Positions 1,147 through 9,550 of a stretch of 9,550 bases of DNA are shown here, in pieces. A program made the position numbers and the translations under genes. Positions within the stretch are counted from its first letter, which is position 1; each line of letters opens with the position of its first letter. Origin of the DNA: Candidatus Cloacimonadota bacterium (GTDB lineage Bacteria > Cloacimonadota > Cloacimonadia > JGIOTU-2 > B8-G9); NCBI GenBank assembly GCA_003647765.1, contig QMNM01000033.1:1-9550 (forward strand), in the 5' to 3' direction. Under the pieces are notes generated by a model. It was not told the DNA's origin, did no database searches, and saw only the letters and a list, made by a program, of their open reading frames with translations.

Positions 1147-1448
1147 TTATAGGACAAACTTAATTGCAATCGCGGACTAATACGAACTATACGAACTCAC
1201 GCGAACCTTTTTATAAATTAAATCTTTTGCGATAAGTTTGTTGAGTTAGCGTTTAGTTTGCGTTTAATCTCTTACTCAATCGCGAACTTGCAATCGCGGA
1301 CTAATACGAACTGAACGAACTTACGCGAACCTTTTTTATCCCTTTTATAAATTAAATCTTTGTAGAACGACCTTCCAAGGTCGTTTAAATGCGATGGGTC
1401 AGTAAAGTCAGTATTTAGTTCGCGTCTAAATTATAGTACAATTAGCCA
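1147..1448. repeat. Non-coding gap filled with direct repeats and a palindrome
   Basis: No gene is visible in these 302 bases. Two direct repeat units lie at 1164-1228 and 1288-1361. They share an almost identical first half (three differences in about 47 bases) and the same ending (ataaattaaatctt). The second carries an extra 10 or so bases just before that ending. Between them are shorter fragments of the same vocabulary (gcgataag, gagttagcg, actcaatcgcg). A perfect 9-bp palindrome with a 2-base centre lies at 1366-1385 (AACGACCTT-cc-AAGGTCGTT). The segment 1373-1433 recurs inverted at the end of the window. The GTTCG/CGAAC-rich composition differs from the AT-rich genes on either side. Confidence 0.8.
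1366..1433 (+). repeat. Dispersed palindromic repeat, copy 1
   Basis: It begins with the perfect palindrome at 1366-1385. Bases 1373-1433, read on the minus strand, align without gaps to 9490-9550 with 52 of 61 positions identical. The end of this copy lies 15 bases before the mbhE start codon, so it forms the upstream region of that gene. Confidence 0.85.
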
Positions 1449-9150: not shown

Positions 9151-9237
9151 GTAAATTTAGTTAATTATCAGGTAAGCTAGTTGTCGTAAGTATAATTTTC
9201 TAAATTTATTATGTAAAAAATATATGTAGGAGTAATA

Positions 9238-9492
9238 ATGGAAGGAATTACATTAGCACAGGCAATTATTAAGGCAGCATCTTTATTAGGAGCAGGACTT
9301 TGTATGGGAATGGGAGCATTAGGCCCTGGTGTTGGAGAAGGTTTTGCAGCAGGAAAAACCTGTGAAGGTATTGCTCGTTCACCTGAAAATGCTGGTATTT
9401 TAACAAGAACAATGCTTGTTGGACAGGCGGTTTCTGAATCCACAGGTATATATTCTCTGGTCATCTCTTTATTGCTTATGTTCGCTGTATAG
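9238..9492 (+). CDS. atpE: F-type ATP synthase subunit c, Na+-type with two carboxylates
   Basis: 84 residues forming the usual two-helix hairpin; copies assemble into the membrane rotor ring that couples ion flow to ATP synthesis. The loop is RSPE (47-50). The outer-helix ion site reads QAVSESTGIY: Gln63, Val65, Glu67, Ser68, Thr69, Tyr72, the set known from Na+-binding c rings such as that of Ilyobacter. The inner helix reads GPGVGEGFAAGK, with Glu34 at the position that is Gln32 in Ilyobacter. A second carboxylate there is the hallmark of the two-carboxylate Na+ rotors described for Fusobacterium nucleatum. AGGAG (9228-9232) lies five bases before the ATG. No atpB precedes it and no other gene starts in the 58 bases after it, which hold a dispersed repeat, so atpE may be transcribed alone. 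Na+ use is inferred from the ligands. Confidence 0.96.
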   Translation: MEGITLAQAIIKAASLLGAGLCMGMGALGPGVGEGFAAGKTCEGIARSPENAGILTRTMLVGQAVSESTGIYSLVISLLLMFAV

Positions 9493-9550
9493 ATTAGACG
9501 CGAACCAAATGCCGACTTTACAAACGCATCGCGTTTAAACGACCTTGGAA
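9490..9550 (-). repeat. Dispersed palindromic repeat, copy 2 (cut by the window end)
   Basis: It aligns without gaps to the reverse complement of 1373-1433, with 52 of 61 positions identical. It begins at the atpE stop codon and runs off the window in the middle of the palindrome (...AACGACCTTGGAA). The expected continuation, if the copy is complete, is GGTCGTT. Confidence 0.85.

What the first reader, a model, noticed from the sequence alone, without database searches (positions are those of the whole stretch)
9238..9492. ATP synthase rotor subunit with a two-carboxylate Na+ motif
The c subunit carries the Na+ ligand set Gln63, Val65, Glu67, Ser68, Thr69, Tyr72 and, on the inner helix, Glu34 where classical Na+ c subunits have Gln. 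This combination is the one described for the Fusobacterium nucleatum rotor. Finding it here in a non-fusobacterial context suggests a sodium-driven ATP synthase with an extra proton held in each site.
Basis: partly seen in the sequence, partly recalled or inferred. Interest (0 to 1): 0.62.

Follow-up and report, generated by a model that had tools for sequence, protein, structure and literature searches.

The report
Sodium rotor with fused silent partner
The gene makes a normal-looking sodium-binding piece of the spinning ring of an ATP-making enzyme, but in this group of bacteria the same gene cluster also encodes a fused multi-copy version of that piece that has mostly lost its ion-binding sites, which should change how many ions are spent per ATP.

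Summary
Window 9238-9492 encodes an 84-aa F-type c subunit. E34 and E67 align with Glu32 and Glu65 of the F. nucleatum ring, and V65, S68, T69 and Y72 are all present. The host is a Candidatus Cloacimonadota MAG. The motif itself is ordinary: 65 of 67 single c subunits examined in the phylum have it, a 2021 paper already infers a Na+-dependent F-ATP synthase for the phylum, and a second glutamate alone does not prove Na+ use. The larger finding lies outside the given coordinates. The same genome, and nearly every Cloacimonadota genome with this c subunit, also encodes a fused c protein of three hairpins, normally directly upstream of the single c. Most of its hairpins have Gln where the ion-binding Glu should be (Glu kept in hairpin 1: 40/65, hairpin 2: 8/65, hairpin 3: 56/65). 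Two- to five-hairpin versions accompany close relatives in Latescibacterota, Hydrogenedentota, Planctomycetota and Desulfobacterota. Best explanation: a hybrid Fo rotor of single Na+-binding c subunits plus a multi-hairpin c with silent positions, lowering Na+ per ATP. This extends the A. woodii / C. aceticum two-hairpin hybrid rotor, apparently with independent origin.

The parts
9238..9492 (+). single-hairpin F-type c subunit (84 aa) with two-carboxylate Na+ site
9228..9232 (+). AGGAG, likely ribosome-binding site, 5 nt before the ATG
   Evidence: read
9337..9339 (+). codon of Glu34 (inner helix, aligns with F. nucleatum Glu32)
9436..9438 (+). codon of Glu67 (outer helix, essential ion carboxylate)
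9488..9550 (+). copy of a dispersed intergenic repeat that overlaps the end of the gene and reaches the contig end; probably why the contig stops and why the genes downstream of c are not seen
   Evidence: 19 matches to the 131-nt query in the genome, the query's own place included; inverted copy at 1373-1435, 86%

Best explanation
The window's c subunit is the ion-carrying half of a hybrid Fo rotor. Many copies of the single-hairpin c each bind one Na+ between E34, E67 and S68 and the V65 backbone carbonyl, as in F. nucleatum and I. tartaricus. They form one ring together with one or more copies of a second, fused c protein, here a three-hairpin protein of 240 aa on another contig (G000:C174:2390-3112). 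In this genome only its first hairpin keeps a Na+-type site (E/ES); hairpins 2 and 3 have Gln and are silent. A silent hairpin passes the stator arginine without carrying an ion, so fewer Na+ cross per turn and per three ATP. If the ring has 11 hairpins with one fused copy (assumed from the A. woodii and F. nucleatum rings), it would carry 9 Na+ instead of 11, about 3.0 instead of 3.7 Na+ per ATP. Shown: both genes exist, are under purifying selection, are adjacent in nearly all relatives, the fused protein is predicted with high confidence to be three c hairpins, and the carboxylates are lost. Inferred: co-assembly in one ring, copy number, ion specificity, ratio.
For: Gene order a - fused c - single c - b - delta - alpha - gamma - beta in relatives. 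Phylum survey: 65 three-hairpin and 1 two-hairpin fused c beside 67 canonical single c; singles always E/ESTY (65) or Q/ESTY (2); Glu67 in hairpin 1 40/65, hairpin 2 8/65, hairpin 3 56/65 (one of the 65, G063, has a frameshift in hairpin 3). Two genomes have three silent hairpins (G091, G098), so in them the fused protein could not form a working ring alone. Median dN/dS 0.11 (fused) and 0.09 (single). AlphaFold2 of the own-genome fused c: pLDDT 94.8, pTM 0.88, three hairpins; two of its hairpins match A. woodii c1 4BEM_J at Z 18.7, 1.5 A over 161 residues. Precedent: A. woodii and C. aceticum c1, with the second hairpin lacking the carboxylate, beside single c; Na+-dependent enzyme (PMC7911925). 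Own genome has rnfG/E/A-like genes (L118), a membrane PPase and OAD-beta.
Against: No structure, proteomics or stoichiometry of any such ring. In this particular genome the single c is not next to the fused c (C33 against C174), and no b or delta subunit was found. The MAG is 88.8% complete in 360 contigs, so this may be a gap or may mean the enzyme is incomplete here. The stator arginine is invariant (89/89), but subunit a gives no Na+/H+ verdict.
Confidence: 0.78

Rival explanations
1. Homomeric ring. Only the single c forms the working rotor, as in F. nucleatum, and the fused protein is a non-rotor membrane protein or an assembly helper.
For: The single c alone has a complete site. In this genome the two genes lie on different contigs.
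Against: The fused protein is made entirely of c hairpins, normally sits between a and single c in the atp operon, is under purifying selection, and A. woodii / C. aceticum give a precedent for mixed rotors (PMC7911925).
Confidence: 0.1
2. Ring-size seed. The fused c is in the ring, but its main role is to nucleate assembly or fix ring size and register with the central stalk; the lower ion/ATP ratio is a by-product.
For: First, middle and last hairpins form separate position-specific groups across phyla. Some lineages keep Glu67 in all three hairpins (8/65), so loss of sites is not the only constant feature.
Against: Loss of the carboxylate in the middle hairpin is nearly universal (57/65 without Glu67 in Cloacimonadota; 48/52 without Glu in other phyla), which a pure assembly role would not require.
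Confidence: 0.3
3. Proton rotor. The two-carboxylate sites of the single c bind two protons and the enzyme is H+-driven, as in the B. pseudomallei N-type ring.
For: Two-carboxylate rings can be H+-selective (PMC5376962; PMC3692424).
Against: The B. pseudomallei ring has Thr62, Met63 and Tyr66 after its Glu61, whereas here S68, T69, Y72 and V65 match F. nucleatum. The phylum is read as Na+-energised (PMC8542988).
Confidence: 0.15

Closest known systems
Fusobacterium nucleatum c11 ring (PDB 3ZK1/3ZK2)
   Same: Na+ site with two glutamates; same ligand positions
   Different: Reported as a ring of 11 identical c subunits; no fused partner described there. The window c has one extra residue in the inner helix before the site and groups apart from it in the hairpin tree
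Acetobacterium woodii / Clostridium aceticum hybrid rotor (c1 + c2/c3; PDB 4BEM)
   Same: An operon with a fused c whose hairpin lost the carboxylate plus single Na+ c subunits (PMC7911925); structural match of two hairpins at 1.5 A
   Different: c1 has two hairpins and one silent. Here there are 3 in Cloacimonadota (one genome with 2) and 2-5 elsewhere, with up to three or four silent in a row. The two A. woodii hairpins group with each other and with I. tartaricus / F. nucleatum, not with the first and last hairpins here, which indicates an independent fusion
V-type / A-type proteolipids (eukaryotic V-ATPase c, E. hirae NtpK)
   Same: Fused hairpins; V-ATPase c chains match two hairpins of the model at 2-3 A
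   Different: The operon and neighbours are F-type (a, b, delta, alpha, gamma, beta); hairpin sequences are F-type. The genome has a separate V/A-type operon with its own single-hairpin K (L118)

Membership tests
F-type ATP synthase c subunit | two-helix hairpin of the ATP-synt_C family with the essential carboxylate on the second helix | tested here: met
F-type ATP synthase c subunit | encoded in an atp operon of F-type order | tested here: inconclusive
   Met in relatives. In this genome the gene stands alone at a contig end, with a - fused c - alpha on C174
Two-carboxylate Na+ c ring (F. nucleatum kind) | Glu at the inner-helix position plus outer-helix Glu, Ser, Thr, Tyr | tested here: met
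Two-carboxylate Na+ c ring (F. nucleatum kind) | Na+ protects the site from DCCD; Na+ drives ATP synthesis | not testable with these tools
   needs membranes or a purified ring
Two-carboxylate Na+ c ring (F. nucleatum kind) | homomeric ring of 11 copies | not testable with these tools
   A fused partner c is encoded, which makes a homomer unlikely, but ring composition was not measured
Hybrid Fo rotor (A. woodii kind) | a fused multi-hairpin c with a lost carboxylate and a single-hairpin Na+ c encoded with the same ATP synthase | tested here: met
Hybrid Fo rotor (A. woodii kind) | both kinds of c in one ring | not testable with these tools
   needs a purified ring
Hybrid Fo rotor (A. woodii kind) | fused c has exactly two hairpins and shares ancestry with A. 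woodii c1 | tested here: not met
   Three hairpins here; A. woodii hairpins group elsewhere in the hairpin tree (short sequences, moderate support). It works like that rotor but is not shown to be the same lineage
N-type ATPase | beta-epsilon first, atpQ/atpR, then a-c-b-alpha-gamma | tested here: not met
   F-type order in relatives; a beta-first N-type-like operon was seen only in G041 (L134)

The most novel reading that the evidence does not exclude
An ancient, modular class of F-type rotors exists across several anaerobic phyla. Its second c protein is built as first hairpin + 0 to 3 middle hairpins + last hairpin. Gain and loss of silent middle hairpins tunes the ion-to-ATP ratio, and the ring must turn through an arc of up to three or four consecutive hairpins that carry no ion (for example G091, G098 and some Hydrogenedentota), which the usual step-by-step ion hand-off model does not cover.
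Probability: 0.5. Interest if true: 0.82.

Novelty: new variant of a known kind. Interest (0 to 1): 0.6.

Why it matters
The number of ion sites on the rotor sets how much of the ion gradient one ATP costs, and cells near the thermodynamic limit of life are thought to adjust it. Only one fused form, two hairpins with one silent, was found described in the papers read here. A phylum in which this is three hairpins almost throughout, and a wider set of anaerobes with two to five hairpins and different numbers of silent sites, gives a natural series for testing how the ratio is tuned and how a rotor crosses an arc without ion sites.

Tried and rejected
Chance motif: rejected, strong family and PDB matches. 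Fused c as artefact of missing stops or assembly: rejected, 65 genomes, low dN/dS, confident fold. Fused c belonging to the V-type enzyme: rejected, it sits in the F operon, and the V-type operon has its own K (L118). Missing b and delta: Pfam searches and a relative's b protein found nothing in this genome; unresolved. RnfD/NqrB absence in this genome is probably incompleteness, since rnfG/E/A-like genes are on C35. Using subunit a to decide Na+ or H+: no residue could be trusted. A survey of other phyla by genome handle was not possible, so frequencies outside Cloacimonadota come only from the 80 closest loci. G041's single c was counted but lies in an N-type-like operon. Brandt & Mueller 2015 (hybrid rotor survey) and Matthies 2014 are not held, so I cannot exclude that some 3-5-hairpin c proteins were noted there.

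Full report
What was claimed and what is there. The window is contig C33 of a 1.97-Mb metagenome-assembled genome whose relatives are Candidatus Cloacimonadota. At 9238-9492 there is an 84-residue c subunit. Aligned to solved rings, E34 falls on Glu32 of F. nucleatum (Gln32 of I. tartaricus), E67 on Glu65, and V65, S68, T69 and Y72 on the other Na+ site residues (residue roles from PMC3692424). Gln63 is not one of the ligands listed in that paper.

What the motif means. The second glutamate alone is neither rare nor diagnostic for Na+. The F. nucleatum paper itself names S. pneumoniae, M. tuberculosis and M. acetivorans and treats the second glutamate as equivalent to glutamine. A Burkholderia pseudomallei N-type ring with two carboxylates is mainly H+-selective (PMC5376962). 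[quoted passage not shown] Within the phylum 65 of 67 single c subunits counted have Glu and 2 have Gln at position 34, so both states occur side by side.

The unexpected part. The genome search for c hairpins returned, besides the window gene and a V-type K on C35, three hairpins in one reading frame on C174. They form a 240-residue protein between subunit a and subunit alpha (G000:C174:2390-3112). In relatives the order is a, fused three-hairpin c, single c, b, delta, alpha, gamma, beta. In the phylum survey (124 genomes) I read the c region of the genomes with this enzyme: 65 three-hairpin and 1 two-hairpin fused c. The family labelled f3 mostly shows only 1-3 c hairpins per genome; the one f3 locus inspected (G041) is an N-type-like operon.

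Lost sites. In the fused protein the outer-helix Glu is kept in hairpin 1 of 40/65, hairpin 2 of 8/65 and hairpin 3 of 56/65; otherwise it is almost always Gln. Hairpin 3 has Ile or Val at the inner-helix position, so even where Glu remains it lacks the Na+ ligand there. One of the 65 (G063) is frameshifted in hairpin 3. In the window's own genome the pattern is E/ES, S/QT, V/QS: one possible Na+ site out of three. Two genomes, G091 and G098, have none. Selection is purifying on both genes (median dN/dS 0.11 and 0.09), so this is not decay.

Spread. All 80 loci fetched by similarity to the window c were checked. Outside Cloacimonadota 14 have three, 13 four, 9 two and 4 five hairpins in the partner; a few more are cut by contig ends, and the loci without a fused partner are cut at contig ends or, in one Cloacimonadota locus, have the fused gene split into two frames. 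These come from Latescibacterota, Hydrogenedentota, Planctomycetota, Coatesbacteria and Desulfobacterota-type records, including the cultured Desulfatibacillum alkenivorans (L082). In the hairpin tree, first hairpins group together across phyla, middle hairpins group together, and last hairpins group with the single c (moderate support, about 75 columns). Two-hairpin forms behave as first plus last, with G123 having lost the middle one. The two A. woodii c1 hairpins group with each other beside I. tartaricus and F. nucleatum, which suggests that their fusion was separate.

Structure. AlphaFold2 predicts the own-genome fused c as three hairpins (mean pLDDT 94.8, pTM 0.88). Two of its hairpins match A. 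woodii c1 (4BEM_J, Z 18.7, 1.5 A over 161 residues). The five-hairpin Desulfarculaceae form is also confident (pLDDT 91.1, pTM 0.89). These models support hairpin architecture, not ring assembly.

How it most likely works. Single c subunits supply Na+ sites; the fused c takes up at least three positions of the same ring, most of them silent. Each silent position passes the invariant stator arginine (89/89) without an ion, so a turn costs fewer Na+. C. aceticum's two-hairpin version is read the same way (PMC7911925). With an assumed 11-hairpin ring and one fused copy, this genome would use 9 Na+ per turn, about 3.0 per ATP. Copy number and ring size are not known, and co-assembly is inferred.

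Caveats for this genome. The single c stands alone: a DNA methyltransferase lies upstream on the other strand, and a dispersed repeat begins at its last codon and runs to the contig end. b and delta were not found. In a same-order relative (G121) the single c, b, delta, alpha, gamma, beta and epsilon are together and the a - fused c pair lies elsewhere. Assembly gaps are the simplest reason for what is missing here.

Novelty. Hybrid rotors with a two-hairpin c are known. I found no description of three- to five-hairpin F-type c proteins in the papers searched, but the key 2015 survey could not be read. I therefore call this a new variant of a known kind.

Noticed in passing
[quoted passage not shown]
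   Followed up: partly
window 9488-9550 and 1373-1435: A dispersed repeat of about 60 nt, inverted copies 86% alike within the window, with further partial copies elsewhere in the genome.
   Followed up: partly
L118 (own contig C35) 1277-4724 and 7063-8965: A V/A-type ATPase operon with a single-hairpin K of 124 aa with an N-terminal extension, next to rnfG/E/A-like genes; identified by eye from the translations.
   Followed up: partly
L130 and L124 (G106, G123): G123 has a two-hairpin fused c made of first and last hairpins, a natural loss of the middle hairpin; G106 lacks Glu67 in both the middle and last hairpin.
   Followed up: no
L078 and L084 (Deltaproteobacteria): The two-hairpin fused c lies downstream of the single c and keeps Glu at both site positions in both hairpins, unlike the upstream forms.
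   Followed up: no
window 1164-1212 and 1288-1336: Two copies of a 49-nt intergenic direct repeat, 94% alike.
   Followed up: no
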